A stretch of DNA of 64,000 nucleotides from Deuterostichococcus epilithicus. Lineage: Eukaryota > Chlorophyta > Trebouxiophyceae > Prasiolales > Stichococcaceae. The stretch covers positions 1,054,001 to 1,118,000 of the forward strand of contig JAVTLE010000003.1 in NCBI GenBank assembly GCA_033439295.1. The letters run 5' to 3'. Positions within the stretch are counted from its first letter, which is position 1. Each line of letters opens with the position of its first letter. The notes under the pieces are model-generated. The model was not told where the DNA came from. It searched no databases and worked only from the letters and a program-made list of their open reading frames with translations. Positions 1 through 64,000 of this stretch are shown here, piece after piece. The position numbers were made by a program, and so were the translations under genes.

Positions 1-227
1 TTTCGTACTGGCACGAATCCAACTCGTTGGCTGTGGCTGTGCCGAGCGCCCCTCATGCAGCTCCCCTATCTCCTCGTGCACCCTGAGGCTCCGCTGCGGC
101 CGCTGCCATCCGACAGTTTGCCCAGAAGCCGCCGCCCTGAACCCTCAAGGGGTTCCGCTGCGGCTGCTGCCACCTGACCAATCGCCCTACACCTGCCGTC
201 CTGAACCCTCGACCCTGCCGCACACAG
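1..227 (+). repeat. Intron/5' flank with a 64-base tandem duplication
   Basis: This stretch lies upstream of the first visible exon of the ACT-domain gene and ends in an acceptor (cacacag|GG at 227/228), so it is probably intronic. Positions 87-150 and 151-214 are two diverged copies of a unit with an exact 64-base period. Both carry CCGCTGCGG near the start and CCTGAACCCTC near the end. I see no convincing coding exon here. Confidence 0.6.
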
Positions 228-2913
228 GGTGCTGGAGATCTCGGACCAGGTGCGCACGGTGCTGGGGCAGTCGGCGGCCGAGTGCGCCATAACCCCCGCG
301 CCATCCGACTCCGAGGCGGGCGACTCGGCAACGTCCATGGCGGCGCGGTGCGCCTGCAAGGACGCCAGCCCGGTATCGCCGCTGGCGCGGCTGGTGGAGC
401 GGCGCGCCGGCGGCGGCGGCGGCGGCGGGTCCACTGCCGCCTCCTCCTCCTCCTCCTCCTTCGGCACGCTGCTGGTGCGCAGGCTGAACTGTCATGGCGA
501 CCATCTTTGCGCCGTCATGGCGGCCACCTCGAACCCCCAGCAGTCAGATCGATGCAGGGGTGGGCGGGGCGCCTACAACGGGCGCCTGCGGCGGGCGCCT
601 GCCCGCGGCAGCTCGCGCCATGTTGGAATCAGGAACCCGCACGTCCTGTGTGCACCTCGGCGTGTGCACCGCGGCGCATCTCAGCGACCCCGCAAGCAGC
701 GGCAGTCAGCTGGTGCAACCCCCATCCAGGCGCCTGCCTCTGGCACGCGCAGGCGGAGGCCGGCGGCGACGAACACGGCGGCGACCTGGAGGCGGTGTCG
801 GTCACGCTGGACAATGCGACCACGTCTGCCTACTCCCTGGTCACCGTGGTGGCCGCGGACCGCAAGGGTTTAGTGTACGACCTGATGCGCACGCTCAAGG
901 ACATCCACCTGCGCGTCGCCTACGCCAAGGTGCATGCCGCGTGCTGTACTGAGCCTCTGAGCCTCCGCAGCCTCAACGGCCAGTGGTGCACGGCTGTCCG
1001 CGGGCAGCTGCCACGCTGAGCTGCACAATGAGGCGGCCGCATGCCCTAGACCATGTGTCTCACGTACCCATGCTGCACTCTCTCGGCACTGCTCTGGTGG
1101 AACCTCAACCTTCGGGGCTGTCTCGAGATCAAGACACGGCAACCTCTGGACGAATCTCCTGCTGAAGTGTCTGCACGGCTGGTCGCAGGTGGGGGTGCGG
1201 GACGATGGCATGTGCGAGGCGGACCTGTTCGTGCAAGAGGTGGACGGCGGCCGCGTTCGCGATGCGTGAGTCCTCTCCGCTGACATCTGCAAACATCCTT
1301 CCGCATGTCGCGATGCTCTCTGCGCGACTCGCCTGCTGGAGCCGGCTGATCCCGGCTGTGGCACCTCCCCCTGAGAGCCAGCTCGGCAAGCGCGCCGGTG
1401 CTTGTGGCTTGGCAGCAGTTATGGCCACCAGCCTTTCCGTCGTCCCAGCTGCCAGCCTTTCGTTCGAAAGGCTGGAGGCGTGCACCCTGCGTGCAGCCTG
1501 CGGCTTTTCTTGATGCTTCAGACCGCCATTCAAATCAGGCTTTTCTCAGGCGCTGTGCGAGGTGCAGGCGGAGCCGCTGAAACGCACGAAACTCGCATCG
1601 ACGCTGCCGATGGCCAAGCTCCTGAACGGGCGACTCGATGCATCAACCGTGTCGTGCGCAACGCTCCGCGGAAAGCGCAGGCGGAGCTGTGCATCGCCTA
1701 AAGTGCGCGGTGGCGTCGCCGCTGACCTCCCAGCCGTTCCGCCGCTCCGGCCTCCAGCCGCTCAACAGCCTCCTGCGCTGTCCTGCAGGGAGGCGCAGGC
1801 AGAACTGGTGGAGCGCATAAAGTACGCGGTGGCGCTCCCCGTGCGCATCTCCATCAAGGACGTCTACGACGACACCTGCACCGAGCTGCTCGTCACCGCG
1901 CAGCTGGACTCGGGTGCGTTTTGGCGCCGCTGCTGCTGTGCTGCCGGTCAGCGTGCGCAACCTATCAAATGCGCCCAAGCGGGGAGGTGGGGGAAGATGG
2001 GAGGAGGGCTGCCTCAAGCACTGGATCGTGCACCAGGCTCCCACAGCCTCCACCCCCCCGCAGCTGCAACTGCAATCACAGCGCCGTCTATATCAACACG
2101 CCTGTGTGGTCGACCGCCCTGCAGGCGGGCGGGGGCGGCCGCGGGTGACGTATGACGTGACGGCGGCGCTCAATGCGGCGCGCCTCTGCGTCTTCATGGC
2201 GGACATCTACGTGGAGCCTGTCGTCGAGGTGGCGCCCCCCGGGCGCCGCCCCCAGGAGCTGCACCGCTTCCTGGTGCACACGTCGGACGGCAGCCGGCTG
2301 TCGTCGGCGGCGCAGAAGCGGTGAGGCACCTGCTGCGCTACCCAAGGTGTATTAAAGCTTTTCGCAAAACCTTTTATACCCCTCGGCGCTACCAGGTGGA
2401 GACGGAGGGGCTCATGTGGGTATGCGACCTCTGCCTGAAACTCATCCTGGCATGTCGCCGACTGCAACTGCGGCTGTTACAATCAGCTTTGCAGCAGGCA
2501 GCCGCCTGCAATTCCTGGTGTACATCCACCCTCGACAAAGCTGTTGTAGCTGCGCATTCCCCAGCCGTCATCGTCACCTCGTCTGAGAAGGATCTTCCCA
2601 ATCACGCGCGCGAGGCCTTTGGTGTGAGAGGCGAGTTGTCGTGCTGGTCTGCGGCCACTAGAGCTGGTACCAGCGTCCTCTCGACACAGAGCATCACATG
2701 TTGGCAACGGTGTCAAAATACTATCCCCTTGCGCACAGGGCCATGTACGACAGGGTGCGCGCGCAGCTGGGCGGCACCGTGGCGGGCAGCGCCAAGCCCA
2801 AGCCCAAGCCCAAGTCGGCGGCGCCGGCAGCCAAGCCGGCGGCGGCGCCCACGCTGCAGGACGACGGCCGCGAGCTCATCGACTCGCTTGCCAACTGGAA
2901 ATGGAGCAGCTGA
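228..2913 (+). CDS. ACT domain-containing protein (ACR11/ACR12-like), 5' partial
   Basis: Six exons are visible: 228-474, 753-929, 1189-1265, 1789-1913, 2125-2320 and 2739-2913, stop TGA 2911-2913. The joined frame is open for 331 residues. The first exon begins at an acceptor, so the start lies outside the window. A Gly- and Ser-rich stretch opens the visible part. A first ACT domain (YSLVTVVAADRKGLVYDLM) follows, then a second ACT-like unit (TCTELLVTAQLDSG and ARLCVFMADIYVEP). The Lys/Ala/Pro-rich C-terminus ends in LANWKWSS. Plant ACR proteins with two ACT domains are plastid amino-acid-sensing regulators, for example of glutamine synthase/GOGAT. That role here is inference; no catalytic domain is seen. 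The 523-base intron before 1789 holds two echoes of that exon's start. A TGTAA signal at 3741-3745 could end the transcript. Confidence 0.75.
1549..1846 (+). repeat. Exon-edge triplication in ACT-gene intron
   Basis: The true exon start (GCGCAGGCAGAACTGG from 1793) is preceded by two diverged copies, near 1675 (GCGCAGGCGGAGCTG) and near 1563 (GCAGGCGGAGCCGCTG). The offsets are about 118 and 114 bases. Similarity continues through the matching acceptor region and about 45 bases of exon. The most distant copy still reads in the exon's frame: VQAEPLKRTKLASTLPMA against AQAELVERIKYAVALPVR. Confidence 0.8.
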
Positions 2914-12739: not shown

Positions 12740-15700
12740 TCAGTCGCTGGTGTGCAGCGCGCGCGCGTCGGCTGCCAGCTGGGCGGTGGCGGCAACCGCG
12801 ACGCGCGAGCGCGATGCGATGAGGTTGTTCATGAACTCCTCCAGCAGCGCGATGGTGATATTAGGCATCACCACCACGTGCGCAATGTCGCCCTGCAGAA
12901 TTCGATGATGCGGGGATGAAGCATCTTCAAGTGCGGTGTCTTGGCTGCGCAGGTCGCCTGCAGACACCGCGCACTTGCGGCAAATGACTGTACATCCCGC
13001 CGCCGCGGCGCAATGCAGCGCCCGAAGCAGCTCGCCCAGTGGTGAGAGACTTCCACTGTGGGAACACGTCAGCTTTGTGGTGACAGTGCACGCACCTCGC
13101 AGGCGAGCTGCCACTTGCGGACGAAGGACTCGTCCTTGGGGCGCTCAAACACGACGGTGCTGCTCAGCTCGTTCAGCATGCACTTGATGCCTGCGTGCTC
13201 CAGCATCGCCTGCAGGCACACACTGACGAAAGTGGCACATAAAAGAAGTGCATGTGCAGAGCCTACACAACTTCTGCCACTCAGACCGTGGCTTGCCAAA
13301 GATTGTGATTATTGCGTCTGGCGAGCTGCAGCATCCCTCCCGTCAGGAACCTTCCCCCCTATCACACTGCAAGGACGCCTCCGCTCCTGCGTTGTGGCTG
13401 GCAAACCTTCCCCGTGCATCGAAGCGCTGAGCCGTGCAACAGTGGGAGGGGTTCTCACACCAACAGGAGGATGGAAATGGAGCAGAGCAGAAAGGCGGCA
13501 CCTTGAGCAGGTGGGCGTTGCGGAGGCACTTTTCCACGTCCCGCCGCATGCCCTCGTAGCCCTTGAGCGTGAGCGTGTACCACATGTAGATTGGCGCATG
13601 CCCGTTGCGGCTGCCCATGATGGTAGCGTCCCTCGAGTTCAGGTACTCCACCTCGCTACAGTGCGCAACTGACAGAGCCTTGTTCTGTGATTTGCGATCC
13701 TTTGTTGTGTGACGGTTGTTGTTGTCGTGTGAAATGCTGGCAAGGAAGTGCAAGTCGTAGCAAGGGTGGCGTAACTGCGCGCCGCAAAGCTGCCAGACGC
13801 ATGAAGGCATCATGCGGCGTAGGCACCAAAACCGGCACCTTGAACCCCCATAACGGTTAGCTCTGCACATCAGGTGGCGCACCTAGACAGGGCCATGACG
13901 TAACGCATGCGGGTGATGACGACGCCGCAGGGCACTGGCGCGCCCACGAACTTGTGGCCGCTGACGCTGACGGAGCCGATGGGCTTCTTGAAAGTCACCA
14001 TGGGCGCCGCCTTCACGAAGGGGATCTGCGGGCAAAAGCAGCGGCGCAGCGTGAGGTGTGGAAATGGCTCAGTATGTCATGATGACAGCTTCGTGAATGT
14101 CAATCGTGGGCGCAGCCTTGACATGAAGGATCTGCGCCAGTGCACAGCAGCAGCGCCGCTGAGCTCATGTGCTCTGCATCATGAAATGATGTCATGGCGA
14201 CGCCTGGTGGGCGGAAGCAGCAATCAGTCAGAGCAAGCTGCGGCAAAAAAAAGCCCAGACAGATCCGATCGAACCCGGCAGCGCAGTTTGCGCAGCACGA
14301 AGCACAGGCGGTCTCTGCTGTTGCGCCAGCCGGAACCGCGGGCTCACCATGAGGCCGAAAAGGGCGCCGTCGCAGTGGATGAAAAAGCGGTCCTCGCTGT
14401 AGCCTGCGCTCTCGAGGATGGCCAGCACCCGGTCCAGGTCATCAACAGCGCCGCGCACCTGCAGGGAGCACAGCGCTCTGCGGTCAAGGGCAAGCAGCGG
14501 TCGCAGGAGGCACTTCCGCGTCCATCAGGACGGCCGGCACCCTGTCGAGGTCGTCCACCGCACCGCGCACCTGCAAGGTGCCCAGGGTTTCATGTCAGGG
14601 TTTCAGTAGCTGTGTGCGCTGCATGTGCAATGCGCTGCCTCGAAGCTGTGCGCTTGTCGCTGGTCCGGGCCGGCCTCCGTGCCACGCACCTGCGCCAGCC
14701 AGGGTCTGTAGGGATGAACATGCATGAGGGTGAATGCTTTTGCGGCCCCCAACATGACCAGCTCCCTTACTTTGGTCGTCCACTGCGCTGCGCAACCTGT
14801 AGGGTTTCGGATATGGTGGCATCATGAGAAGATTATGTGTCGGCCCTTGCAATCCCGCATGCGCGCGCGGCTGCTCCGGCCAGGGCCCCTGTTTGGCATA
14901 CTCGTACTTCAGGAACCGGGATCCATGTAGGGCAACCCGACTCCCCAGCAGCCCTGCAGCGTGAGCCGTGGTGGCGCAGCGGCGCGCAACCCTCGACAAG
15001 CGCCCAGGTTCAGCGCCTTGCCGCCGTCCCCGGCTCCGCTCATTCCCCTCTCCGCATTTCACAGTTCACACCCGCGGCCTTAAGTTGCAGTTTCTAGGCG
15101 CAGTCAGGCGCATTCAAATGCAGTCAGACGCAGTCGCACCGTGGTGCCAATGTTGACATTGATGATGGCGGGCCGCGCCACGTTGGCGCGCAGCCGCTCC
15201 TCCAGCTCGTCATAGTCGATTTCGCCCGTCGGCAGTGTCGCAACCTGCGCAGTTTTTGCACCAGCAAGCGTATGGACCAGGACCAGGAGCAGCAATTAGC
15301 TGGTCATCCACTTGCTGGCTTGCGCCAGCACGTCAGCCGCCAGCACGGCAGCCAGAGGATTGGCGGCACCGCAGCCGGAGCAGGGCTGCCCAACGGACGA
15401 CCAGGAAGGGCAGATGTCAGCAGGCATGCAAGGGTTCAGGGTTTTGACCACCTCGATGGCGTCCATTCGGTACATGCGCGCCGCCTTCATGACCGAGTAG
15501 TGCGTCTCCTTTGACGTGTACAGGATGCCTGCAGGAGGTGGCCAAGCACGGAGTCCACCGGTTTCTTGCAGCAAGCGGACCGTCAGCGGACCGTCGTTTG
15601 TAAAATTGCCACACAACCTTCAAGGCAAGGCGCTGCGCCGGCGCCCTTGCCGCAGAGCCCAGCCTGCCCGTCAATTGGGCTGCGCGCCTCCCGAGCATTG

Positions 15701-17694
15701 CAGGGCAGAGGCGAGGCTGCACAGTCCACGGGCTGACGAGCCAGGGTCGTGAGCGCCTCAGGCATGACGCCTGTGTGTTTCAGTCCCCGACATGTGGACA
15801 ACCAGCTGTCGGCGCACCGTCAGGCAGGTTCTCGCGGCCGACCAGGATGCCGTGCAGGTTGCCCTCAGTGCCGCAGTTGGTGACATAGCCCCAGTACTCC
15901 TCCGTGTCGATCTCCCACAGCTTGGCGAACCAGTTCAGCACACCGATCTGCGCGGCAGGGGGAGGCGCTGCTTGGCGTGAGTTTTGGCAGGGCGGAGAGC
16001 GGGAAGCCCAGCGGCTGGATTTCCGACCCGGAGTTGCAGGCGTATTGCTCGCGGCTGAATCATTGAAGCTCTGTCTGTCGCAGGCTGGTTCGCCAGGTCA
16101 GGCCTTGCGGCCCTGCTGCGTGCTGCAGGCGCCAGGTCAGGGGGCCATCACCGTGGTCAAGAGGAGAGGTGATGTTGGGGCGGGACACGCGGGCAGCCCA
16201 CCTCAAACTCGCGGGAGTGGACGCCGTAGTTGGACTCGATGAAGGGGTCCCCCAGGTTGTTGATGCTGAACTTCTCCAGGCCCTCCAGGGCGCCATAGTC
16301 AAAGTCCAGGTTGTACGGGTACCTGGATCAGGGTTTTGGGGCAGGGTCTCCATCAGACTGTTGGTGCTATCGTTTCCTCCCCCTCCAGCGCACCATAGTC
16401 GAAGCCCAACTGTCACGCGGGCGCCTCGGCAGGAGTTTGGGGAGGGTCCGGAAGAGGGACACCAGTTCCGCTCGAACGCTGCTGACTGGCGCCATGCCAA
16501 TGCCTGCTGTCGTCAACCGCTGTGGCCGGTACAGAAGTCGAGGGCGCCTTGCAGCGCGCAGTGCTGGCCGCTGGCTGCCGAAGCCTGGCGCGCGGCCGGC
16601 GGCTCAGGAGGCGCCCTGTCCGTGCCGCTGCCGCCGCAGCCGCTGCATGCGACATGGGAGCCGCACGGCCCCCCGAACCACGGATCTCGGCAGGACCGGG
16701 AGCACCGGAACGCACCCCATGTGGTGCTTGGTGCGCTCCTGAAGCCGGTCGCGGTAGGCCTGCAGCACGCCGGCCACCTGCTCCTGAAACTCCTGCGGTC
16801 GCATCATCGCCGCCACGGATCAGCACGAGGCCGCAGGAGTTGGTCATCCGTCGGGGACCCCTGTCCTGCAGACTGGTGTTCGTCCCGCAGTCCGCGGCTC
16901 CGTGCACCCGCCGCGCGCTGGTCGTCACCGGCTGCCTCGGAGGCCTGCTGAGCATGCTCCAACTCCACTCAGACTGCAGTGGAAGCGTCCACCGCATCTG
17001 GGGCTGTGCAAATGACAGATTGAGGCGACGCCGACTCACGAAGCGTGTTGCCACCCCTCGGACTGACACGCAGCATGCATCGCACCTCTGGAGACTCATG
17101 CACGCCGGCCTCCATCACCGCCTGCGCCGCAGTGTAGTTGTGGGTGATGTTCACGGGGCCACGCACTGGCAGCGCCTGCGTCGGCAGCAGTGGCTGCCCC
17201 TCCGCGGGCTGGACCACCGCCTCCTGCGGTCTCGGCGACCGCATGGGGCTCTTTGGCTGCGGCACAGCGCACGTGCCGCCGTCGCCGTTGGCGCCGCGGC
17301 TGGTTCCGTCGCCGTTGCCACTCGCGCCACTGTCTCCGTTGCCATGGGAGCGCGGCACGGCGCGCGCTGGGCTGCCGACGGCGAAGGCGCTGCTGCCGCT
17401 CGCCTTTGCGAGGTTGCTGCTGCTCCCGGCGCGGCTGCTGCTGCCGGACCTTGCGGGCGAGCGTGGCGTTGAGGCCTGCAGCAAATCCGGCACCGGCTGT
17501 GCCGGCAGCAGGCCACCCTCGAACTGCTGCTGCGGGAGATGCGGCATTGTAGCCGGCGCATGGTCCAGGATTGAGCCTGCACCTGAGGGCCCATCACGTG
17601 GCTCCTCGCCGATCGCGTGGCTGCGCGGCTCTGCAGCATCTGACACTGGCGTAGGCCGGCGCTGTAAGGTTGCCAGCACGGCTGGATCCGCCAT
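12740..17694 (-). CDS. SDC: Serine decarboxylase (PLP-dependent, group II)
   Basis: Eleven exons: 17086-17694, 16716-16792, 16202-16322, 15818-15947, 15452-15528, 15140-15244, 14348-14458, 13883-14025, 13502-13655, 13096-13209, 12740-12892. They sum to 598 codons. From about residue 215 the match to plant serine decarboxylase is close: [64 protein letters not shown], then the PLP-lysine motif [25 protein letters not shown] and [13 protein letters not shown] follow. The enzyme makes ethanolamine from serine for phosphatidylethanolamine and choline lipids. Histidine decarboxylase is the main alternative name for this subgroup, but similarity to plant SDC is strong. The N-terminal ~200 residues are low-complexity Ser/Gly/Ala/Pro. 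Three introns carry echoes of the following exon. Confidence 0.93.
13985..14137 (-). repeat. Echo of SDC exon 8 in the preceding intron
   Basis: Exon 8 starts at 14025 ([14 protein letters not shown]). A diverged copy starts at 14131 behind GCGCAG and reads [14 protein letters not shown] in the same frame. The offset is 106 bases. Confidence 0.75.
14426..14576 (-). repeat. Echo of SDC exon 7 in the preceding intron
   Basis: True exon 7 starts at 14458. A second copy of its edge starts at 14570, 112 bases upstream in gene orientation, behind its own TTGCAG acceptor. Both encode [11 protein letters not shown] over 11 codons. The six differences I count in those 33 bases are all silent. The copies then diverge (LAILESAG against PAVLMDAE). 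Confidence 0.85.
16281..16420 (-). repeat. Echo of SDC exon 3 in the preceding intron
   Basis: Positions 16281-16303 (exon 3, encoding FDYGALEG) recur at 16381-16403 with an offset of 100 bases. The copy also encodes FDYGALEG, and the four differences I count are silent. No clean acceptor precedes the copy. Confidence 0.8.
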
Positions 17695-18750: not shown

Positions 18751-21700
18751 TCAAGAAGACAAAACAACCCCCACCTGCAAGAGCGCAGCCCGTGCGGCTT
18801 CCTGTTCTGCGTCCCGCTTAGAAGTGCCAGACCCCTCGCCAAGCACCTCCCCGCCCAGCTTCACAGTCGTCCGCCACATTGATCCGCTCCCCTGCACATA
18901 TGGCGAACAGGAAAGCTGTGAGGTGGGCGCGGCGCTTCGTATGGCAGACGTACCAGAGCACTCGAAACAGAGCTGGCGAATGCAGCAGGCAGTCTGCTCC
19001 ATGCGAGAGGCAGAAGCACCCGAGGTGTGCTCATTACAGTCAGGCGTGCTCACAGAGACTTGTGCATCCTAAGACCACACGGGCTGCCCGCCTCCTGACA
19101 GTTCCTGGGATGAACATAGGCAAATGCTGGATATTCTCCTGGCACACGGGCTCCTTCGAGCCCGCAGTGGGCTGCCCACCTCCAGGAAGCGGCTGGCGTG
19201 GAATCTGGGGGGCCTCAGCTCCTTGATCTGGCACTGCTCGAACAGGATGCCCTGCAGTGGAGGAAGCACTTGCTGGGAGGCTACCAACTTTGCACGAGCA
19301 ACACGCGCGAGCCCCGACAGGGGGCACATTCTCAGTCGTGACGACATGGCAAAGGTTGCGCCAGGCCGGGACCTCCGACCCAAGCGCAGAGCCAGCACTG
19401 TCAGAGGGTCAAGTTCTGCCGGCACCATGTACTGCCAGCAGCGATGAGTACGCACCAGCAAGTGGACGGCGGGACTCCTCCGCAACCCTCGGCGCACCCT
19501 GCAACTGCAAGTGCAGTTGCAGTTACAACCCTGCACTTGCTCACCTTGAAGTTGCTGTTGATGGTGGCCGTCCGCACGCCCAGCACGTCCTCGATGAGGT
19601 GGCAGGTAAAGTCGAAGGCGGTGCGCCAGCCGTGGTCCAGGAACACCGCGCCGATGAGCGCCTCTGACACGTCGCCGCGCACCTGGTTGCCCCAGTGCCC
19701 TACAGGCAGCGGTTTGGCAGGGATGGGGCTGCAGTCTGTGCCGGAGAGCCGCCGGCAAAACCCGACCACAATGACACCGAAACTTGTGGACCTCTCCCCA
19801 CCATGCAGTTCCCAGCCTTGGTGCTGGCACACCCAAGGCAGCAGCAGTTCACGGCGGCAGCCGGCCACGCATCACAGCGCACGCTGCGCTAGAAACTGAC
19901 CGACCACAGGCTGTCTTCCGGCTGTCAAGCCTCCGCTGAGACGAGCATGGTGAGGCCTGTTCATCAGCACTCACCTCCGCTGAGCATGGTGAAGCCGCTC
20001 GAGGCGATGTAGCGCTCCAGCTGCAGATGCTCAGCCATGCGCAGCAGCGCCCTGGCATCGATCAGCGCATTCTGCACCTGCGAAAAGCACCTTTCACGAA
20101 TCTGGAGGAGCCGTGATTGAAAAATTCATTACCAAAGCACACATAAGTTATCAAGCAATAAAAAGACCAGAGTCCAACAACACCTGCGTCATCGACCCCT
20201 CAGTGGCATCGGGATACCGCTGCATGAGTAGCGCCCGCACCGCCAGGCCCAGCACCGCATCCCCCAGGAACTCCAGGCGCTCGTACGAGTGCGCCACCAC
20301 CTGTGGCACCCCAGCGGCTATCTGGTAAATCAGTCCCGCTGCTCCAGGGTCACCAGGCTGAGGCTGACGGGTTGGTGACCGACTACTTTTGCGCATCCAG
20401 GGTCGCTGAGATCTAGGCCGGCCATGGGCTGACATCTCGTGTCCCTCATGTGTCCATCACAGTACTCGACCCCTGCGCCGTGCTTGTGTTAGGCCAGCAG
20501 GCAAGCATCCCAGGTGCAGACGCAAGCTCACAGCATGGGCGCACAGCAGTTTTGTACCAGGCCGGGCGGCAGCGCCGAGGGCGTCGTGAGCGCACAGCGG
20601 TACAGCTGTGGGTCTTTGACAGGCAAGCCCAGCAATGCCTCCAGCCGCCAGCGCGGCACGTCCTGCAGCGGCAACCCCTGGAAGCGGCCTGCACGAAACG
20701 GTGCACACGAGCACGTTGGCTGTTGACACGTTGAATGCTTCGTCAGCCTTCGCAATCAGCCGCCGTCCTTCACGCAGGCGCCGCCTGACCCCTGTTGCAA
20801 TGCAAGGTCTCACCACACAAAGCACATCCTACATACTCAATGGGACAGCTCCATGAGGATGAGGGGGTTGTTGCATTCTGGTTCGAGGTCGAACAAGGGT
20901 GACACGCTTCTAACATTGCACAGAGAAAGGGGCATACGTGACCCACCTTTCCTGTCGAAGCCTGCCTTGTCGAGTGCCGCTCGCCGGCTGCCAGGGAGCT
21001 TGCCATCTACGCTGCTCAGCATAAGAGCCAGGGTAGGCGACGCATGCACCTCCGGGTGCGGCGGCAGCCTGCCCAAGCGCAGGCGCCGCCGCCAGCGGAA
21101 CGGCAGCGCCCACCACAGTCGCTTCAGCGGCAGCAGGGCCCACTGTGCGACCTTCTGCAGCAGCCTGCAGGGCGCAGATTCAGCTTCTGGCACTCGGTCG
21201 TGTGTCCTGCCACAGAGGATTATGCAGCATATGCACATCTGCCACGACTCTGTGCAGAAGGTGCAACATTGCAATGACAGGAGGGCCCTGCCTGGAAAGC
21301 GCCAGCAGGCTGAAGGCGGCAGCCAGTCGGCCGTGCCAGCCGTTGCTGGCAGCTCCTTCTGAGGCTGGCGTGGCCGCCTCCTGCAGCTGCGGCTCACATG
21401 CGCCGTTCTGAGAGCGGTCGCCGCCTGGCTGAGCAGTGGCAGACAGGCACTCTGCAGCATCATGCTGCCGCTGCTGCTGCTGCTGCTGCTGCTGCTGCCC
21501 TGCATCTGGCTCGTCCACCCCGTCCACGTCGCTCTCGTCGCCATCCGAAGTCAGCTCGGCTTCTGCTGACAGGGCGCCATTCTCCGCCGCCGCAGCCCTG
21601 GCTGCGGCCCGTCGCTCTCGTCGCCTCGCCCGTCTCGCCTCCGCCGTAGCCTGCTTCCTGTCCACCGCCTCCTGCTGTTCGTGATTCTCTTGTTCGGCAC

Positions 21701-25432: not shown

Positions 25433-25585
25433 CTACACGCTGCCGGCAGCAGCGGGCTGCTCCGGGGTAGTTGCGGGCGCCGGCACGGGGGCGCCAGGCG
25501 GGGGCCGCGGCCGCCGCGGCCGCCAGGGGGCCCCGGCCGCTTCCGGGCGGGCCCTTCCCCCGGCCGCCNTCGGGCCTCGGGCCGN
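25091..25585. other. Undetermined bases (N) in GC-rich sequence
   Basis: Single Ns at 25091, 25569 and 25585. The last two fall inside the RGG exon of the G3BP-like gene and make its reading frame uncertain. Confidence 0.95.
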
Positions 25586-32340: not shown

Positions 32341-33144
32341 CCAAGGGTCAGGAGACTAGCACGAGCAGACCACGGTTGGGCGACCAGCGGGACCAATGCG
32401 GCTGTCCATGCTGCGCATTTGCGGCCCACAGGTGGGACCATTCCTCGCTCAAACGCATCGCTGCAGGAGACATTCTTGCATGTCCTCAATCAGACATCCA
32501 TCGCCCGATAGAGTGCAATCTCTGACGCTCTTCATCGCATCTTGCAGGGCAGCGCCCTTCAGGAGTCAGGCCAGTCAACTAATTTCAGTGATGGCTTAGA
32601 GACTGGAATTGAAGTCAATTATAGAGCAGAGCCAGGACCACAGAACAACGAAACGATCACCTGTTGATACACTAACAAGTCTTCCTATCAGTGAACGTCC
32701 GCTTGTGTACAAACAGTACGGATGCGCAGCTGCATGTACGCCGCCATTGCAACACCGCCACGCGTGGCAAAAGCGATGCTGAAGCCGAGATTCTTCAACC
32801 CGAGTTCCCTGAGTGACCTCCGAAAGAAATGTACAAGTACAGCCGTGCGGGCCCATACGATTTGGCAATCTGATGGATCAAGATCGCCATATTACCACAT
32901 CCAGCATGTTCCCTCGTCTCAGCTCCCACCAGGAGGTCTTGCGGACTCACCCGATTCTTCGCAAAGTCGGTCAGCAGATCGCCTGGCTGTTGTCGCCCGC
33001 CCATACATTGCCCGCTAGCACGCATTTTCTGTCGCGTCATCTGTTCATTCAGCGTCAGGACCAACGGCATGACCGCCGCCGCCGCCTGCAATGCTAGGAA
33101 TCGCTGCCCAGCCGCACATGTGTTCCGCCTCGTCATCTGCTCAT
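32341..33144. other. Convergent region with echo of the AlkB gene's 3' end
   Basis: Gap between the stops of the SET gene (+) and the AlkB-like gene (-). Positions 33035-33052 nearly repeat 33131-33148 (17 of 18 bases), an offset of 96. This is a degenerate second copy of the end of the last AlkB exon and the sequence just past its stop. Nothing else is recognised. Confidence 0.6.
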
Positions 33145-44500: not shown

Positions 44501-46456
44501 GACGCAGCGCCTGCACGCTGGGCTCAGGGTCAACGCTCAATCCGACGGCGTGCCCATGCAAGTCCTGGGAGTGCGTGAAGGGGAAGAGCACGACTGCACG
44601 GCTGGGCCTATGTGGGAAGGCAACGCTGATGCGGCAGGCGGCTGGGGCCGCCTGCCAAGGTGTCTAGGGGTTTGGAACGGCATTGAGGTGCGCTGGGCAC
44701 AGCATTTCAGAACCTTCGTTGCGAAACATCTGCCGGGGCGCCGCAGGACGGCGGAGGGGCTGTGGCAGGTGCAGGTGGAGGTTTATCTCGACTGAGGTAG
44801 TGCAGGGAAAATGCATGTCAGCTGAGGCGCTGTTTGTGATGGTGCAGGACGGCGGAGGGGCTGCGGCAGCTGGAGGCGGCGCTCGGGTGCAAGTACGTGG
44901 CAGCGAAGGCGCTGCAGGCTCTCAACCAGGCGTACCTTGTGCTGCACAGCAACAGCCGCCAGAACCCCGTGTTCCTGCAGGCGAGCAGTCAGATGTCCCA
45001 TTGCCCTGCGTTGTGCTATGGTTTGGGTGGTCAGAGCCGCATGAAAGCATCATCACCACTCGCTGCACACCTGGCCAGCCCCGCTGCTGACACGTTCAGC
45101 TCGTCTCCTCGCTACGGGACTGGTGGTGCCGCAGGATTGGGCGCGCATCTTGGCCAAAGCCAAGCGCACCAGAGAGGCGTGCGAGGTGTATGAGCAGCTG
45201 GCCGGTCTGGCGGTGGCGGGTCCGGCAGGTGGCCCTGCGGCGGGGGTGTCGGATGCGGCCCGCGCGGCCGAGCTGTGCCTGCTCGCCATACAAGCGGCAG
45301 GCGCGCAGCCAACGGGGCAGCACGTTCATGTTCCTTCTGCGGAGAGAGGCGACCCGCGGGAAGGCTGCAACGTGTGACCCTGAACTGCAGCGTCCCTGTA
45401 TCGAGCCGCACTACCAAGCCTGAGGCTGATGCAGCTCCGAGGCTCGACCAAACACTGGATGCTGCCCGCGCAGGCGGCCAGGATGCCGGGCTGGAGCAGC
45501 TGGCAGGCTGCGTGCGCGCCCGCGCCGCCGCGCGTGCCGAGGTACAGCGCCGTGGCCCAGGCTCGCGCGATGCGCTGCAGGCGGTGCTCGGCTACCTGGC
45601 TGCTACGCGGCAGCGCTGCAGGGGGGCCGCCGGCGGCGGCGGCAGCGGCGGCGGCGGCGGCCTTGACGTGGATGATGACCAGGCTAGGGCGCAGGCGCAG
45701 GCGGCGCACACGGCGCTCGTCCACCATGTGCAGGTGAATTTGGACCACTGACACTCCAACTTGCGCAGTCACAGACAGCGCATGTGATGGTGATCCTGAG
45801 CTGCGGGCTTGGCCCTGTATCAGCGGGGGAAGAAAGCTTCGGAATGCGGTGTGTCGTGACTGTGCAGGAGCGGCATGCGGCGGACCCGCACCTGCAGGCG
45901 GAGTGGGCTGCCATCCTCGTGGCGGACGGGCGCCCCGCGGAGGCGATGCAGCACTACCAGGCGAGCGCATGTCAAATCGTCCACTGCTTTCTGCTCGCAT
46001 CCTGGCGCTTTTGCTCGCCACCCTCTTTGACGAGATGCACTGCATCCCGTCATGCTCATGACAAACATGTGTTGGCCAGACTGTCGGTATCATGCCATGC
46101 TCGGGGTGACCAGCTGCTGTTCTAAATGCAAATGTTCTGGCTCGCAGGCGGCTGGCGTCCTGTTCAGCGGGCAGCATGCGGCACAGGCAGGAGCAGGCGC
46201 AGTGCTGGATCTGGGGCTCAGTCGACCTCTGACCGTCGACGAACGCGCCGGCAAGGTGGCTCGGGCCTTTGATGCGGCGCTGCACCTGCGGCCAAACAGG
46301 CGGTCGGCGTGCACACTGCTGCAGTCTAAGTGTGCGACACTCCGATGGCTGCTGCAGAGCGTGTTGCCGGCTGATGTGCCTCGAGGCCTGTCCGCGCAGC
46401 AACAGGACTGCATGGCACAGCTCAGCCAGCAATGTGGTGACTTTGCACACAATTGA
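41525..46456 (+). CDS. TMTC: TMTC family ER membrane TPR protein (putative O-mannosyltransferase)
   Basis: Thirteen exons: 41525-41626, 41717-41781, 41874-42098, 42178-42667, 42791-42967, 43193-43751, 43902-44068, 44271-44434, 44848-44980, 45135-45300, 45474-45733, 45868-45960, 46148-46456. They sum to 970 codons. The N-terminus is a membrane anchor followed by the GT-C style acidic loop (FVFDDTFAIVENKDV). Then come YRPVTVLSFRLLACI, HLANILLHFVV, LLFAAHPVHTEAVAGLVGHA, KEPGIT, and the DUF1736 region (ARYFGLLLWPKRLSADWSFA). TPR-like helices follow (KVQLNNGILQRRSSNWTGAL, ACEVYEQLAGLAV and later units). Animal TMTC1-4 O-mannosylate cadherins in the ER. Algae lack cadherins, so the target is unknown. 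Four introns appear to use GC donors. Some inserts, such as a Ser/Gly run near 43.5 kb, are low complexity. Confidence 0.88.
44435..46147 (+). other. GC-AG introns in the TMTC gene
   Basis: Introns starting at 44435 (GCGAGG), 44981 (GCGAGC), 45301 (GCGCGC) and 45961 (GCGAGC) all follow CAG. The 13-exon sum is divisible by three only with these joins. Confidence 0.75.
44741..44884 (+). repeat. Echo of TMTC exon 9 start in the preceding intron
   Basis: The first 17 bases of exon 9 (from 44848, GACGGCGGAGGGGCTG...) recur at 44747 behind a CCGCAG acceptor, offset 101. Past that point the copies diverge. Confidence 0.85.
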
Positions 46457-54300: not shown

Positions 54301-57300
54301 ACGCTGACGGGCGAGGCGCGGCTGACGCCGTCGCCAGCGTCAACGGGTGCCAGTCGCCGGCGTCCGGCAGAGCGGCCGGCCCAGCAGCCGACTGAGCACA
54401 CGGCTGCAAGGGGGCCTGCTGAGGACGCAAGCGGGGCTCATAGCACGGTCCAGGCAGCGGATAGGGACGGCGGCGCGGCAGCAGGCGAGGACGGGCCGCC
54501 GCCTGCCAAGCGGAGGCGGCTGAGCGTTGCGCGGGGCCTGCAGGCTGCTCTGGCGGCGGCTGGCGCCTCCGCCTCGCCAGATGTCGGCAGTGGCTTGCAT
54601 GCGCACCAAGCGCCACAGCCATCCACCGACACACGAACGCCCGCTGAGGGAGGTGCAGCTCACCCTCCTCCACAGCTGCTGCTGCTGCCACCCCGCGGCT
54701 TGTCGCAGACAGCTGCGCAGCCTCAGACTGTTGAAGGCGTGGACGCTGACGATGCAACATGGCTGAACCGCCTGGCGCAAGCGCCCGCGACCCGGGAAGC
54801 CGCCTCAGGGCCCGCCCTCATGAGCAGCCTCCTGGCAAATCTCCCCAGCAGGCCAGCAGGCCCAGTAGGCCAGCCGCGCGCCTCAGGCAGCCGCACCAGC
54901 AGGCCAGCGACCGATGGCGGCCTGCCGGCAACATCATCAGCGACGCCTGCAGCGACGCCTGCCGACATCGGCGGCGGCGGGAAGGTCGATGCAGCAGCGA
55001 CCAGCCGCCTGCATGGCATGGTCATGGCGCACCTCCGGGCGCAACACGAGACCGCGTGCGCCGCGGCAGCAAACCCCATATCGACCCTCGCGCCCATCTC
55101 CCTCCTGGAGCCGCACGTTTTGCCTAAGGTTGTTGTTCGTCTGTCTGATTCCAGCACCTAGGAGCTGTCGCTTCACGCCAGCGCCACCCTACCTGTTGCC
55201 TTCTTGGACACGCGACTAGTCAATGTTGAGATGCTGGTCTGGACCCCCGGCTGAGATTAAAGGACATGCAGGATGTGGCCTCTGAGGCACATACATTTCG
55301 AGCATCCTGGTCGCAGGCTGGCAGGCGCGAACAGGCGCCGCGCAATGCGGCGCTGCGGCTGCTACGCAGGCAGACAGTCGGGCCGCATGGCGGCGCCGGC
55401 GGCCGCCGCCTGCAGCGCCACCTCATCCACTCCCGCTACAGGTGTCTGTCCCAGCCCTCTGCTGCCGTGGCTCGAAAGGACTCTGCACATCCGCGGGCTC
55501 CGCCCGGCCGCGCCTGTGCAAGCTGGCGTGACAGCCACGAGCTCCTCAGGCGGCTGTGGCATTGCGTGTCCATGCTCTTCACGATGCCGACCTGCCTTCA
55601 AGTAAATTGATTGAAAAGCACTTGCTTGTCAACGAGTGTCGGCTGCCTGCCCCGCAGGGTGGTGAGGAGCCTGCGCAACGAGCACCTGTCGGTGTTCAAA
55701 TGCGCGGCGTTTGTGGACCATGGCGAGCTGCTGGCGGTTGGGATGCACTCTGGCGAGGTGCGGCTGTGCGGCCTGAGGAGCAGAATGTCGAAAATGCCAG
55801 AAACACCGGCTGGTTTCCTGCAAGGGTTTGTGACGCTCGACCGATGGACGATCACCAGATTTCCGCAGGTGTGATGTCTCACCCATAACCGCAAATAGGT
55901 TGTGAAGTCTCGGGGCTTACTAGTGCTGCAAACCCCTGCTGTTTTGCAGGTGCGGCTGTACGACCTGGCGAGCGGCGAGCTGGCGGGCTGTGGCACCGAG
56001 TTGCATGCTGCGCCTGTCAACCTGCTGCAGACGCGCGCTGGCGCCGGTGGCGCCGATACAGTGCTGCTGTCCTCCTCGCGCCAGGTGCCGCAGCAGTACT
56101 GTCTCCATGCCAGACTTGCACTGGGTTTCGCACCTGCCGCACGTTGCCTTGACATGCCAAGATTGCCAGGCTGGTTGGCTGTGTCGAGCTCCTTGGTGTC
56201 GTACATGAGCCAAACAGATCAACCTCCGCATAGCAGTCAACCAAACCAGTGCCAGTGTTGGGCGGCAGGACGTCAAGCTGTGGGATGCGCTCGACTTGTC
56301 CAAACCGCCGGCAGTCACATTCACCGGGTACCGCGCCGGCCACTTCAACCGCTGCGGCACCCAGATTGCCGCAGTGGCCTCCTATAGCAGGTGAGCGCGC
56401 AATTTACCGGAAATTGGTGCTTTTGGCCATCGAGCTCTCGGCATTGTCCTGCGTCTTGACAGGCTTTACCTCTGCATTCTGAAGATTGCAGAGCCTTGTA
56501 GGCCAGATCGACCCCTGCTAACACACAACCTTGATCGCAGACGGACATCCATCTTCGATGCGGTCACGGGCGCAGTGGTCCTGCAGCTGGAGGACGCGTC
56601 GGAAACCATCGGCGGCGGCGGCGAGCGCGCTCAACGGTGCGTCCGGGCGCACCCTCTTTCCATCAGTTCTCCATGTCCATGCTTATCCAAGCCATGCAGG
56701 TGCCCGAACGTCCTTGTAGGCTGGAAAGCCAGTTGAACCGCGGCAAATCATTCATTCCCGGGCCGGCACAGCACTGACGGTGCGACGGCCGCACATCTAG
56801 CCCGTCCAAGCTCAAGATGCGCTTACATCTGTGCCGCCGTCAAACTGCTTCCCTTTGTGCATCCAGAATGGCAGGGTTTGCGCTGCCGCAGGTGCTGCCG
56901 CGACTATGCGGTGTTCTCCCCGGCGGAGGACTGGACGCTGATGTGGGGCGACCAGCTGTGGGATGTGCGCACGCCGCGCGCCGTGCACCGCTTCGACTCC
57001 TTCAGCAGCTTCGCCACAGGCTTCTTCCACCCCGCTGGTGCGTCAAGCTTTGCAAGAACACTGAGCAATCCTCTGATTTGGCCATGTCAGATGCATACCG
57101 CATACATTCACCTGCACCACCTAGTTTGCCATCGGCCTTTTGCACCCCGCCGGTGTGCCGCTGCAACGTTGTCGTCTGGACTCATTCATCTGGCATGTGT
57201 CATCCGGGAGGTCTTAGTTGTGCATCATGTGCTCTGAAGGCCACCAGGTCAAATCCTGGCGCCGCTGCTCCGCACCCTGCACAGTGCGGAGGAGCTTCGC

Positions 57301-59571
57301 CTTGACTGCCTTCAGGCGACGCCGCAGTGCGTGGACAGTGACTAGGATGTCGGCAGTGTAGGCCGATTGTGATGAAGCTGCGGCATCGCCAGATGTTCGA
57401 CAGGTCGATGCCAGCCATGATGTCATGCGCTGCAGGGTTGGAGGTGCTGATCAACAGCGAGGTGTGGGACCTGCGCACGCGGCGGCTGGCGCGGTCGGCG
57501 CCCGCGCTCGACGGCGCGGCGCCTGTCTTTGCGCACGCCTCCTCCGACGTCATCTACGCGGCGCAGCGCCGCCTGTTCGACGACCTTGGTGCGATTCTTT
57601 GCGCCCCTCGTGCCAGGTTCCCACCTCCACTAGGCCTCACGTGGGCTAAAGGCTCCCCAGGCTGAGAGCAGAGGTTGTCGGTCCCTGCCAGCAGGCCTTG
57701 TCCACTATCGGCAGGACCTGACTGGCTTGGGTATCTGGGATGTTGAGATATCGCTCGGCACTGACGGCGTGCCTGGGCCGGCAGACGTGGAGTTGAGCGG
57801 GCGACGCGCGCGGCACCCGCTGCACACAGCGTTCCGGGCCGTCGATGCGCGCGACTACACCGAGATCGCCACCACCGACGCCGACGGCCGCGCGGTGCTC
57901 AGGTGCGGCGCAAGGGAGCACTGGCATCGGTTGCCACCCCTGCCACCCCTGCAGGGTCTCTTTCCACACTTTGCCACCACTGATGCCGTCGGGTGCGCCG
58001 CGCTAGCGTCCCGCACCCGCGAGTCTCGCACGCTTGCCCCTGCCGCACCTGCGCGGTCGCTCCGTCACAGTGTCTCCGGCTTTGGCGTCGGCCCTGCGGC
58101 TGCTGCCTCCCTCGCCTAGCTCCATTTGCAGGGTCATGTGGAGCTGCAGCGAGCGGACTGAGCCAGGTGCGTGGCAGCGGTCAGCGCTGCGGTCGGCGCT
58201 GCGGCTCCTTGCGGCTGCTGTGGGTGTCGGCAGTGGGTTCTGAGTGGCGTCCATGCCGTGCTTCCGCAGCATTTCGGTGGACGCCGGCGACAGCTACCTG
58301 GCGGCGGTGACGGCTGAGGGCGGCGAGGCCGCCTCCTCCGCAGTGCGCGTGTACGAGATCGGCCGCCACCCCGCCCTGGTGCCCCCCGCCTCCTCAGTCT
58401 GCATGCAGATGCTGCTCAACTGCGTCCATGTCATGAGAGGATGTTTTGAAAGATTTTTGAAAGATTCGTGCAACCAAGGCAAGATGCCTCTGCTGCCATG
58501 CTCTCGCCCAGACCACCACAACCACAATTAAAATCGCCCGCCCAGGCATTTTGTTAGTGATTACTCCAATGGGTTTACGCCTCCTGACGACAGGACGACG
58601 ACTCAGACGGCGACGACGCCGCTGCAGACGAGGAGGAGTCTGATGGGGAGGATGCAGAGGAAGACGAGGACGATTCCATGGGCGCCTCCGAAGACTCTGA
58701 CGAGGACTCGTTGGCGGCGGCGGCGGCGGGTGGGTCGGGGGCGGACGACAATGACGATGACTCCACGTCGTCGCTGGAGGACGCCGCTGCTGTACTGTTT
58801 GCGGACGCGCCCCCGGACGGCACCTCCGACTCTGCGGGTAACGCTATTTGAAGACTGCCTTTGACTCCGCATCTGCCGCCATGCCATAAGGGGTGTTGGG
58901 AGAGGGGCCGGGCCCAGGTTGCGCAGGCGAGGATTCATGGTGTGCGCACTGTCGCACTCCAGATGCAGCACATGCTTGCAGCTGTGCGGCACGTCTCTAA
59001 AGGAAACCTTCTCTGCGTGCGGCCCACCCTGAGCAGGCGCCAGCGCGCCGCCATGCGCACGCACCACATACGCGCGGACTGCAGACCATGCCATGTGCGC
59101 AGCTGCACAGGAAACGAGCGAGCCAAGCACTGTAGGCTTGCCAGCGAGCTGTCCAATGCCCATTGCTGGTTGGCGCATTGCAGGGTCTGATGACGGCGCA
59201 GGTGGCGGGCTGTCAGACGAGGATGGGTCCGACGGCATGCCACGCTTCTACGAGGAAGAGGTGGGGGCCTTGACAGCAGCGCTGCCCTGCGTCATGCCTG
59301 GCATTATGGTTGACAGAGCTTGGTCCAAGGGACCGTGCACCGCACCCCTCTCTAGCATGCTGCAAGACACATCCTCCCCCGCCACAGCTCCTTGTATTCC
59401 TCTGTCGTCTGGACAAAGCAGTACAGAGCGTCACGGTTTGTGTGTGGCCAGGGCATGGCGGGCAGCGAGGATGACTGGGAGACTGACAGCAGTGGCAGCG
59501 ACGGTGGCGCCGCAGGCGCAGGCGTGTGGCAGGACGCGGTGCCTGCATGGGCGCGCCGCCGCCTGCGGTGA
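48353..59571 (+). CDS. DCAF1: DCAF1/VprBP, CUL4-DDB1 substrate receptor with LisH and WD40 domains
   Basis: I place 27 exons summing to exactly 1712 codons. Landmarks: exon 1 48353-48409, exon 2 49057-49278, LisH exon 54119-55128, WD exons 55272-57902, acidic exon 58594-58837, last exon 59452-59571. The N-terminal half is an ARM-like repeat region (CDS ends such as FMACDGPTLMLDLIQASPG and YALDVLAVVTLVPATRRPI match plant DCAF1). The LisH motif is YQPAELLQLIAEHLRASGL. A second helical motif is MVMAHLRAQHETAC before ANPISTLAPISLLEPHVLP. WD40 repeats contain ELLAVGMHSGEVRLYD, QDVKLWDALDLSKPPAV, LEVLINSEVWDLRT and AAFRTVD-like FRAVDARDYTEIAT. An acidic Asp/Glu/Ser tail ends in WARRRLR. DCAF1 presents substrates to CUL4-DDB1 ubiquitin ligase and is essential in plants. 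Exon 1 is inferred from splice phase only. Confidence 0.93.
50869..54118 (+). other. GC-AG introns in the DCAF1 gene
   Basis: Introns starting at 50869 (GCGAGC), 52554 (GCAAGC), 53012 (GCAAGG) and 53905 (GCACGT) follow AG. They are required to join conserved DCAF1 blocks in frame. Confidence 0.75.
55758..55973 (+). repeat. DCAF1 intron whose first bases copy the next exon
   Basis: Intron 55758-55949 starts GTGCGGCTGTGCGGCCTG, and the next exon (from 55950) starts GTGCGGCTGTACGACCTG. About 20 of 24 bases match, each copy following an AG. Confidence 0.85.
57007..57160 (+). repeat. Echo of DCAF1 exon end in the following intron
   Basis: The end of exon 56892-57037 (encoding FATGFFHPAG) recurs at about 57122-57157 with one base missing and many third-position changes. 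The offset is about 115 bases. Confidence 0.75.
57860..58220 (+). repeat. Echo array after a DCAF1 WD40 exon
   Basis: The end of exon 57692-57902 (EIATTDADGRAVL) recurs at about 57969-58008 (HFATTDAVGCAAL), offset about 105. A further similar pair (TCGGCCCTGCGGCTGCTG near 58086, TCGGCGCTGCGGCTCC near 58193) lies about 107 bases apart. Much of the 367-base intron may be stacked units of about 100 bases. Confidence 0.7.
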
Positions 59572-60530
59572 AGGCTGCCGGCAATTGCTTCCGCCACTGC
59601 CGCTGCTGCCTTGGAGGTCTCAAGAGCAAGTTACCTACCATGGACAGCGCCCGCTCATGAGGGTTGACGGTGGGGCGGTCACCTAACTGTTTGAGTTGGT
59701 TTCAGCATGTTGTAGTCGGGCCAAGAGGCCGATAGTCACGACGTTCATTTGCGGCTGGTCATCAGTGAGGAGCGGTCATCAGTCAGAAACCTGTCGTCCT
59801 TGCAAAAGCCATCGCACCTGCACGTTGTTCCACGACAGGTCTGCTGGCGGTTGTTGCTAGCTATCTCGGTTCTTCTAGATCTAGACGGCAGTTAGCGAAT
59901 GGAACGATATTCAAACATATGCGTCCCCTCGGATCGCTCCAGACAGCATGTTGTCGGTCCAGCTGCGCAAGTGAGAGCATGTGGTCAATTTTGCACGCAC
60001 CAACTTAATCCGAAATATAAACTATACCGCTACGGCATGCATTTCCAGAGCCAGGGTGCGCTGCATCAACACGAGCACTATTCAGGCATGGAGACCATGC
60101 CGATGCGTTGCCAGAGCCAGGGTGGCAGGCAAATGTAGGACACAAGTTTCATCGCACGAGTACAGTTGTGGAAGAGACTGATGCTCGAAGATGAAGTGAA
60201 ATGTCGTCGGCGGGAACAGTATGGCTATTGAGTCTTGCTCTCATCAGCTGGCTGCTGTGAGAATTCTTGCCGCTCAACATCAAGATGCTGGAGCAGGAGC
60301 TTGGCTTCAGTATTCTTGCGGCTCAGAAGGTGCTTGGCATCGACCGCACAGTGGAAAGGACTTTCGATTTGAGTGCAGCTTGCTCAGTCCCGCCAGAAAA
60401 CTGTTCGGCGCTGGTTTAAATTTCTTCTCTTAAAAAAGGCTGCTAAACTAAAAGCCAAAAGTGCGTTCAGAGCGGGAGTCGAGGTCAAAAAGCACGTCGA
60501 TAAATTTGTCTCCTCTGCGCAGTCGTGAGT
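59572..60530. other. Convergent region between DCAF1 and F-box genes
   Basis: Holds both 3' UTRs. A short direct repeat (CCAGAGCCAGGGTG at 60045-60058 and 60111-60124, within about 25 similar bases) has a 66-base period. AT-richer than the coding neighbours; no gene recognised. Confidence 0.45.
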
Positions 60531-63534: not shown

Positions 63535-63586
63535 TCATTGCCGCTTCTTCTCTGCGGCGCCTGGCGCTTTATGCTCTGTGGCGATG

Positions 63587-63637
<51 letters not shown>

Positions 63638-64000
63638 GGCCGTTGCGCCTCAGGATGCCGCTGCTGCGACTTCTGAGCACCCAGCTCTGGCGGGAAGCTT
63701 GTCCGCAGGATGAGCAGCAGCGTCTCCAGCAGCATGGCAATACTGAGCCCGATCATGCCGCCCACCATTTTCTGCGGGGATGTCACAGCATGCGATCAGG
63801 CCGGCGACATACCACTTGAATTGCATGCTCTGGCCGCAAAACCAGACTCGAGAAGGGCCTGAAGTGCCCCTAAGCGACTGCGTTTGAGTGGGACATCTAG
63901 GGTGCAGGATCCTCACGTAGGCGGGTCGGGAGGACAGCGCGCCGCCGGCGACGTGGCCCATGGCATAAAAGGCGCCCATCATGGCCAGCACGTGCACACC
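63535..64000 (-). CDS. VMA12: Vma12/TMEM199-type V-ATPase assembly factor, 5' partial
   Basis: Two exons are visible: 63917 to the window edge, and 63535-63771 with stop at 63535-63537. The sequence MMGAFYAMGHVAGGALSS then MVGGMIGLSIAMLLETLLLI gives two membrane helices in the Vma12 pattern, ending ILRTS. Vma12 family proteins sit in the ER and help assemble the V0 part of the vacuolar H+-ATPase. After the second helix comes a Gln run of 15 from a CTG repeat and a short Lys/Arg tail. Identification rests on the last ~110 residues only. Confidence 0.65.
63589..63633 (-). repeat. (CTG)15 / CAG trinucleotide repeat
   Basis: Fifteen uninterrupted CTG units on the plus strand, read as 15 glutamines on the minus strand near the C-terminus of the Vma12-like protein. 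Confidence 0.95.

What the first reader, a model, noticed from the sequence alone, without database searches (positions are those of the whole stretch)
1..64000. Introns in many genes carry diverged echoes of the neighbouring exon edge
Seen directly in at least seven introns of five genes (ACT, serine decarboxylase x3, RNase III, TMTC, DCAF1 x2-3). A copy of 20-50 bases spanning an exon-intron boundary lies about 45-120 bases from the true boundary, always in the same orientation. Similar-sized tandem duplications also occur outside introns (87-214, 33035-33148, 60045-60124). This looks like a genome-wide habit of short tandem duplication that, where it spans a splice junction, enlarges introns and supplies spare splice sites. 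I know of single cases of intron gain by tandem duplication but not of a genome with echoes this frequent.
Basis: partly seen in the sequence, partly recalled or inferred. Interest (0 to 1): 0.85.

Follow-up and report, generated by a model that had tools for sequence, protein, structure and literature searches.

The report
Exon edges copied into neighbouring introns
In this alga-like genome about one predicted intron in ten holds a worn copy of the edge of its own exon about 110 bases away, far more than chance gives, which suggests that repeated small repair accidents at exon edges make its introns longer.

Summary
My self-trained gene finder called 552 introns in the window plus 200 kb of contig C1. 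An exon-edge copy (score >=28) sits in 52 of 552; swapped introns give about 0.9 and the reversed own intron 5. Offsets are mostly 80-160 bases. The copies decay almost neutrally, occur in 37 of 148 introns of 300 bases or more, and form ladders at 14 of 54 edges (2.5 expected). The proposed mechanism, tandem duplication spanning the junction, fits only a minority. Usually the copied block (~50 bases) is exon plus a median of 6 bases of splice site, next to ~60 bases of unrelated filler. In 8 of 8 young pairs tested (core identity >=86%) the adjoining intron is not duplicated. Filler-type pairs inside introns are rare: 2 seen, at least 21 expected from a uniform process. Filler is enriched for this genome's telomere repeat (8/46 vs 16/676). 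Best reading: staggered-break repair with filler at exon edges, tolerated because the duplicated splice site lets the insert be spliced out; close to the Daphnia neointron model but tied to exon edges. No transcripts or relatives were available.

The parts
1793..1841 (+). ACT-domain gene: start of exon 1789-1913 (true copy)
   Evidence: ACR9-like ACT domains by Pfam
1675..1721 (+). ACT gene: first echo, offset 118, 40/49 identical
1559..1586 (+). ACT gene: second, weaker echo, offset 231, 21/28 identical (ladder; score 21, low)
14415..14469 (-). Serine decarboxylase: acceptor edge of exon 14348-14458 (true copy)
   Evidence: serine decarboxylase 8jg7 aligns
14527..14581 (-). Serine decarboxylase: echo, offset 112, 45/55 identical; read as an exon (14514-14570) it adds 19 aa absent from 8jg7
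14774..14804 (-). Serine decarboxylase: further ladder echo, offset 338, 25/31 identical (a 13-base piece, 12/13, also at 14681-14693, offset 231)
14088..14136 (-). Serine decarboxylase: echo of exon edge 13983-14030, offset 106
16359..16408 (-). Serine decarboxylase: echo of exon start 16258-16308, offset 100
44743..44778 (+). TMTC gene: echo of acceptor edge 44844-44879, offset 101, 32/36 identical; adjoining intron not duplicated
   Evidence: TMTC domain by Pfam
57973..58061 (+). DCAF1-like gene: plain tandem copy of donor region 57868-57961 (exon end plus ~59 intron bases), 71% over 95 columns; here the intron part IS duplicated
57111..57166 (+). DCAF1-like gene: echo of donor edge 56999-57055, 68% over 60 columns (score 27, just under the strict cut-off)
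19932..19957 (-). RNase III gene: weak echo of exon edge 19976-19996 (26 columns, 77%)
   Evidence: borderline
34635..34654 (-). Predicted gene 33145-36903: 20-base echo of donor edge 34724-34743 (18/20)
80..210 (+). Plain tandem pair 80-146 / 141-210, 74% over 70 columns
33009..33207 (.). Tandem pair 33009-33108 / 33105-33207, 65% over 114 columns
60037..60124 (.). Short pair 60037-60058 / 60103-60124, 91% over 22 columns, 44-base spacer, outside predicted genes

Best explanation
Most echoes are scars of small insertions of about 110 bases at an exon-intron junction. Shown: a block of about 50 bases (exon edge plus a few bases of the splice site) is present twice in direct orientation. The copies are separated by a spacer of about 60 bases (sd 24) with no clear match to either flank. 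The intron-side copy decays almost neutrally. Some edges carry several copies. Inferred: the block is the filled-in overhang of a staggered double-strand break. The spacer is filler joined in during end-joining, sometimes telomere-repeat DNA. The change survives because the duplicated overhang carries the splice site, so the exon-proximal site stays in use and the older copy plus filler is spliced out with the intron. Repeats of the event at the same edge push older copies inward and lengthen the intron. Why breaks fall at exon edges is not known. One possibility is that breaks arise mostly in exons and only those that take the splice site along are tolerated. The other is a transcription- or splicing-linked break.
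For: Excess, orientation and offset. The matching profile falls to background within about 20 intron bases (48 pairs). Young pairs: of nine filler-type pairs picked, eight had core identity >=0.86, and in all eight the adjoining intron scores 8-16, at or below the 95% point of its shuffles and under the 5% point expected had it been duplicated; the ninth (0.79) is uninformative. Near-neutral decay: mismatches 0.163, 0.178, 0.224 by codon position. Intron-internal filler pairs: 2 against >=21 expected. Two fillers tested have no second copy in the genome; introns share no families apart from tandem paralogues. Telomere 7-mers in 8/46 fillers against 16/676 intron ends, Fisher 5e-5. Ladders at 14/54 edges, 2.45 expected. 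One predicted intron (90 bases, offset 90, telomere-like filler by eye) looks like a birth by the same event.
Against: Direct repeats in the Daphnia work are, as I recall, much shorter than 50 bases, and overhangs that long are unusual. I have no before/after pair: three young cases had no paralogue elsewhere in the genome, and the one tandem paralogue pair showed six indels of 18+ bases, none an echo. Most fillers (38/46) hold no exact telomere word. Same-strand similarity of filler to its neighbourhood is slightly above control (18.4 and 19.2 against 16.9 and 17.0). A templated insertion of the exon edge into the intron would leave almost the same scar. Exon-edge concentration is not itself predicted by random breaks.
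Confidence: 0.45

Rival explanations
1. Templated insertion: a break inside the intron is repaired by copying a ~50-base patch from the nearby exon edge (template switching, polymerase-theta or synthesis-dependent annealing); the spacer is original intron sequence.
For: Needs no filler; gives the same direct-repeat-plus-spacer layout and also leaves the adjoining intron unduplicated; spacer unique in the genome in two cases.
Against: Templates should be intronic at least as often as exonic, but intron-internal pairs are rare (2 against >=21); block ends at the junction are unexplained; spacers are richer in telomere words than intron ends without echo.
Confidence: 0.25
2. Plain junction-spanning tandem duplication, then faster loss of the intron-intron part because both of its copies are free to change.
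For: True for a minority: 5 of 35 exon-intron pairs with offset 40-200 have a spacer of 10 or less, e.g. C1:177541 (92%); also window 57868-57961/57973-58061 where the intron part is visible. Plain pairs are as common inside introns.
Against: In 8 of 8 young filler-type pairs the intron side scores below what duplication would leave (hand-picked, not all young pairs); paralogous introns stay alignable at 72% where exons are 89%, so introns do not evolve that fast.
Confidence: 0.15
3. RNA route: a fragment of pre-mRNA protected at the splice site is reverse-transcribed and captured at a nearby break.
For: Would explain blocks that are exon plus a few splice-site bases at both exon ends.
Against: No direct evidence. 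Blocks crossing exon-exon joins were not looked for systematically; none was noticed in the alignments printed.
Confidence: 0.07
4. Echoes are kept for a function such as decoy or alternative splice sites.
For: Echo GT/AG intact in 30 of 38, about 22 expected from block identity; one echo in serine decarboxylase is open in frame (19 aa).
Against: Near-uniform mismatches over codon positions; echo sites weaker in 34 of 38; alignment ends favour intact dinucleotides.
Confidence: 0.05
5. Chance, protein repeats or gene-finder artefact.
For: Gene models are unsupervised and some echoes were called exons.
Against: Excess is present without any gene model; swapped, reverse-complement and displaced controls are low at these offsets; several echo alignments carry gaps that break the frame.
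Confidence: 0.03

Closest known systems
Daphnia pulex neointrons by repair of staggered double-strand breaks (PMC4202315, passages read)
   Same: Insertion flanked by direct repeats; repeated bouts of staggered breaks proposed to lengthen introns; 55/90 new against 100/617 established introns hold internal repeats (their counts).
   Different: Here the repeats are ~50 bases and tied to existing exon edges; filler is partly telomeric; only one convincing candidate new intron, the rest enlarge existing introns.
Intron gain by tandem genomic duplication of AGGT exon segments (review PMC3443670, passages read; potato case PMC4974935, listing and start of abstract only)
   Same: A duplicated exon segment ends up inside an intron.
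   Different: That model predicts intron length = offset and no filler. Here offset is usually shorter than the intron; predicted intron 68 (length 90 = offset 90) fits but has 32-36 bases of filler.
Direct repeats near intron splice sites (PMC11782384, abstract and passages read)
   Same: Reports direct repeats at or near exon-intron borders.
   Different: Pairs of 4-30 bp compared between the two borders, in 213 introns; not ~50-base copies of one border inside the intron with swapped-intron controls.
Telomere-repeat insertion at double-strand breaks in mammals (PMC2246262, passages read)
   Same: Telomeric repeats as filler, in some cases with duplication at the site (6 of 130 rodent and 4 of 25 primate loci in their table).
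   Different: No exon-edge link in the passages read; here most fillers hold no exact telomere word.
Small tandem duplications by fill-in of complementary 3' overhangs (PMC8355091, passages read; rice patch-mediated repair, seen only as a reference there)
   Same: Biochemical route from staggered break to direct repeat.
   Different: Engineered breaks in cells; no exon-edge link and no long filler in the passages read.

Membership tests
Junction-spanning plain tandem duplication | Two adjacent copies; repeat length equals offset; intron part duplicated too | tested here: not met
   Not met for 30 of 35 exon-intron pairs by the spacer cut-off (>10); intron side unduplicated in 8 of 8 informative young pairs. 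Met for 5 of 35.
Intron gain by tandem genomic duplication | Intron length equals the offset of the repeat | tested here: not met
   Among 54 edge hits only predicted intron 68 (90/90) convinces; one other (71 bases, offset 69) rests on a 14-base match.
Staggered-break repair with filler (Daphnia type) | Direct repeat flanking an insert of unrelated DNA | tested here: met
   Block about 52 bases, filler about 63 bases in 34 events; filler largely unrelated to its 800-base flanks (>=30 in 4 of 200 comparisons, 0 of 1200 control).
Staggered-break repair with filler (Daphnia type) | Ancestral allele lacks both one repeat copy and the insert | tested here: inconclusive
   No usable paralogue found; no relatives held.
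Introner elements | Many introns share one sequence family | tested here: not met
   All-against-all search of 552 introns: 14 hits at E<1e-3, 12 of them within a set of tandem paralogues.
Telomerase-filled breaks | Filler is telomeric repeat of the species (CCCTAAA here) | tested here: inconclusive
   8 of 46 fillers, enriched about 7-fold against controls, but 38 lack an exact word.

The most novel reading that the evidence does not exclude
In this lineage exon edges are a specific, recurrent target of a break-and-fill process that duplicates the splice site with ~50 exon bases, adds filler (partly telomeric), and drives much of the growth of long introns from their ends inward; the targeting may be coupled to splicing or to exon-limited R-loops.
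Probability: 0.3. Interest if true: 0.8.

Novelty: new variant of a known kind. Interest (0 to 1): 0.62.

Why it matters
How introns grow and where new intron DNA comes from is a long-standing question, and usually the evidence has decayed. Here one copy is held by coding constraint, so the scar stays readable: 37 of 148 introns of 300 bases or more still show it. A genome with dozens of such events per few hundred kilobases would let the process be measured, and would test whether breaks are aimed at exon edges or only tolerated there.

Tried and rejected
Chance repeats and composition: rejected by shuffles, displaced targets, swapped introns and reverse complements. Protein repeats: exon-exon pairs exist (13 of 60 unique pairs with offset 40-200) and were kept apart. 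Introner families: not found. Filler copied from elsewhere: no second genome copy in the two cases tested; filler against its +-800 base neighbourhood gives at most a slight same-strand rise (18.4 and 19.2 against 16.9 and 17.0; four of 200 comparisons reach 30). Filler-type as a general local process: rejected by the intron-internal deficit (the territory ratios and the mutation model are my assumptions). Paralogue before/after comparison: one tandem pair, no echo indel; three young loci have no paralogue. Genome-wide telomere-near-splice-site patterns (11, 27, 140, 85 against reversed controls 1, 0, 2, 3) mostly show that telomere words are common, so I do not lean on them. Rfam found nothing over its gathering scores in the window. 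My first gene finder run collapsed to two giant genes and was replaced. The alignments printed were self-matches and were discarded; its profiles and segment scores stand. In that segment test the control mean is raised by a tail (means 12.9 real, 13.8 control; medians 12 and 11), so one search was run as a sharper test. Three comparisons were also self-matches and were redone.

Rows dropped: introns of 100 bases or less in parts, of 150 or less in the profiles; fillers outside 20-130 bases and identity under 0.72 in parts; the satellite near C1:653000-653560; low-complexity bases masked in the scans. The mask hid at least one more donor echo in the exon after intron 157, which one search found and one search shows. 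One search used ten hand-picked pairs (nine filler-type, one plain), not every young pair; C1:87401, 96704, 132397 and window 60037 were left out.
Full report
What was examined. The window is G000:C3:1054001-1118000 of an unnamed 46.8 Mb genome in 21 contigs. G+C is about 62% and the telomere repeat is CCCTAAA. It looks like a green alga to me, but that is a recalled impression, not a test. All counts below rest on these 264 kb, about 0.6% of the genome, unless a genome search is named.

The observation without gene models. Ungapped direct repeats in the window are 27 against 4.0 in shuffles, with 11 against 0.3 at spacing 100-199. In C1 the gapped scan gives 104 near pairs (score >=34), 67 of them at offsets 50-199, with a steep fall after 200. 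Displacing the target by 9 or 17 kb leaves 1 and 7. Displacing by 5 kb leaves 47, all in the bins from 575 bases up (a separate distant repeat).

The observation with gene models. A self-trained two-strand gene finder converged on 59 genes and 552 introns, with donor CAG|GTGCG and acceptor TGCAG|G. Pfam and PDB searches support several window genes: ACR9-like ACT, serine decarboxylase, RNase III, TMTC. The DCAF1 name has only sub-threshold WD40-type support here. Exon edges find a copy in their own intron in 52 of 552 introns at score >=28, against 0.35 (donor) and 0.5 (acceptor) in swapped introns and 3 and 2 in the reversed intron. Offering up to 200 exon bases gives 24 and 30 hits against 1.3 and 1.6 swapped, 4 and 2 reversed. 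Echoes are rare in introns under 300 bases (15 of 404) and common above (37 of 148).

Anatomy. At donors the order is exon edge, splice site, filler, copy of exon edge and splice site, rest of intron. At acceptors it is the mirror image. In 34 better events the offset is 112 +- 27, the block about 52 and the filler about 63 +- 24 bases; the block's intron-side end has a median of 6 bases inside the intron at both kinds of edge. Exon-side identity is about 0.6 in an ungapped profile of 48 pairs and falls to background within about 20 intron bases. Segments 8-48 bases into the intron show no similarity at the same offset (45 pairs, mean 12.9 and median 12, against 13.8 and 11 in 406 controls). 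The sharper test takes young pairs one by one: of nine filler-type pairs picked, eight have core identity of 0.86 or more, and in each of the eight the adjoining intron scores 8-16, at or below the 95% point of its shuffles and under the 5% point expected had it been duplicated at the same age. The ninth (0.79) is uninformative, and a pair classed as plain (C1:177541) scores 17, just above its shuffles but also under that 5% point. A minority are plain: 5 of 35 exon-intron pairs; in the window 57868-57961 with 57973-58061 is one by its alignment.

Exon-edge concentration. Among unique pairs with offset 40-200 (60 in all), 30 are exon-intron with filler, 5 exon-intron plain, 5 intron-intron plain, 2 intron-intron with filler, 13 exon-exon, 5 other. 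Class and location are associated (Fisher 0.005). A simulation of detectability after double decay expects 21 or 38 intron-internal filler pairs from a uniform process, depending on the territory ratio (1.6 or 2.9); 2 were seen. The ratios and the mutation model are my assumptions.

Decay and recurrence. Mismatches per codon position of the exon are 0.163, 0.178 and 0.224, so the intron copy changes almost freely. Fourteen of 54 echo edges have a second echo at score >=22, against 2.45 expected. In the window the serine decarboxylase edge at 14458 has copies at offsets 112, 231 (13 bases only) and 338, and the ACT edge at 118 and 231. Serine decarboxylase 8jg7 aligns without the 19 residues of the first echo, which supports the true edge.

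Filler. Telomere 7-mers are among the most over-represented words in introns (AAACCCT 24 against 5.1). They occur in 8 of 46 fillers against 11 of 338 intron starts and 5 of 338 intron ends without echo. By eye, two of the youngest fillers are telomere-like throughout (introns 157 and 68), and the youngest pair has a telomere piece in its filler. Others have none, e.g. C1:682746. Two fillers tested have no second copy in the genome.

Reading. The layout matches repair of staggered breaks with filler insertion, described for new introns of Daphnia (PMC4202315, passages read). Long overhang and exon-edge position are what differ. I think the duplicated splice site is why such insertions are tolerated. 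Whether breaks are aimed at exon edges, or merely arise in exons and survive only at the edge, is open. Templated insertion is the strongest rival and cannot be excluded without a relative.

What is in print. My searches covered intron gain with tandem duplication, filler DNA, direct repeats, interstitial telomeres and splice-site duplication in the held library. Their listings did not show a genome with exon-edge echoes at this frequency. Five papers were opened (PMC4202315, PMC3443670, PMC8355091, PMC2246262, PMC11782384), in passages. Subscription journals are largely not held, so this is weak evidence of absence.

Limits. No transcripts, no relatives, unsupervised gene models that sometimes took an echo for an exon, one extra region, rough simulations, and a hand-picked set.

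Noticed in passing
window 5836-6646: Three exons of one gene repeat the same acidic peptide at spacings 387 and 287: tandem exon-intron duplication with all copies apparently coding.
   Followed up: partly
window 8487-8922: Two zinc-knuckle-like exons (my reading of the translation) repeated at spacing 334.
   Followed up: no
L022 (C1 about 652950-653560): Short satellite with a 153-base unit.
   Followed up: no
L022-L023 (C1 about 653500-664700): Tandem gene pair with paralogous introns 72% and exons 89% identical; a usable yardstick for intron change in this genome.
   Followed up: yes
L014 (C1:578631-578777): The exon that has the young acceptor echo (intron 157) also seems to have a donor echo at offset 114, hidden by the low-complexity mask; my gene finder ran the exon on to the copy.
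   Followed up: partly
whole genome: Interstitial telomere words are common near splice-site-like motifs (140 AAACCCTA within 30 bases before TGCAGG, reversed control 2), which may only reflect how common they are.
   Followed up: partly
window 14514-14570: An echo in serine decarboxylase is open in frame with splice sites usable by the gene finder (57 bases); it might be an optional exon.
   Followed up: no
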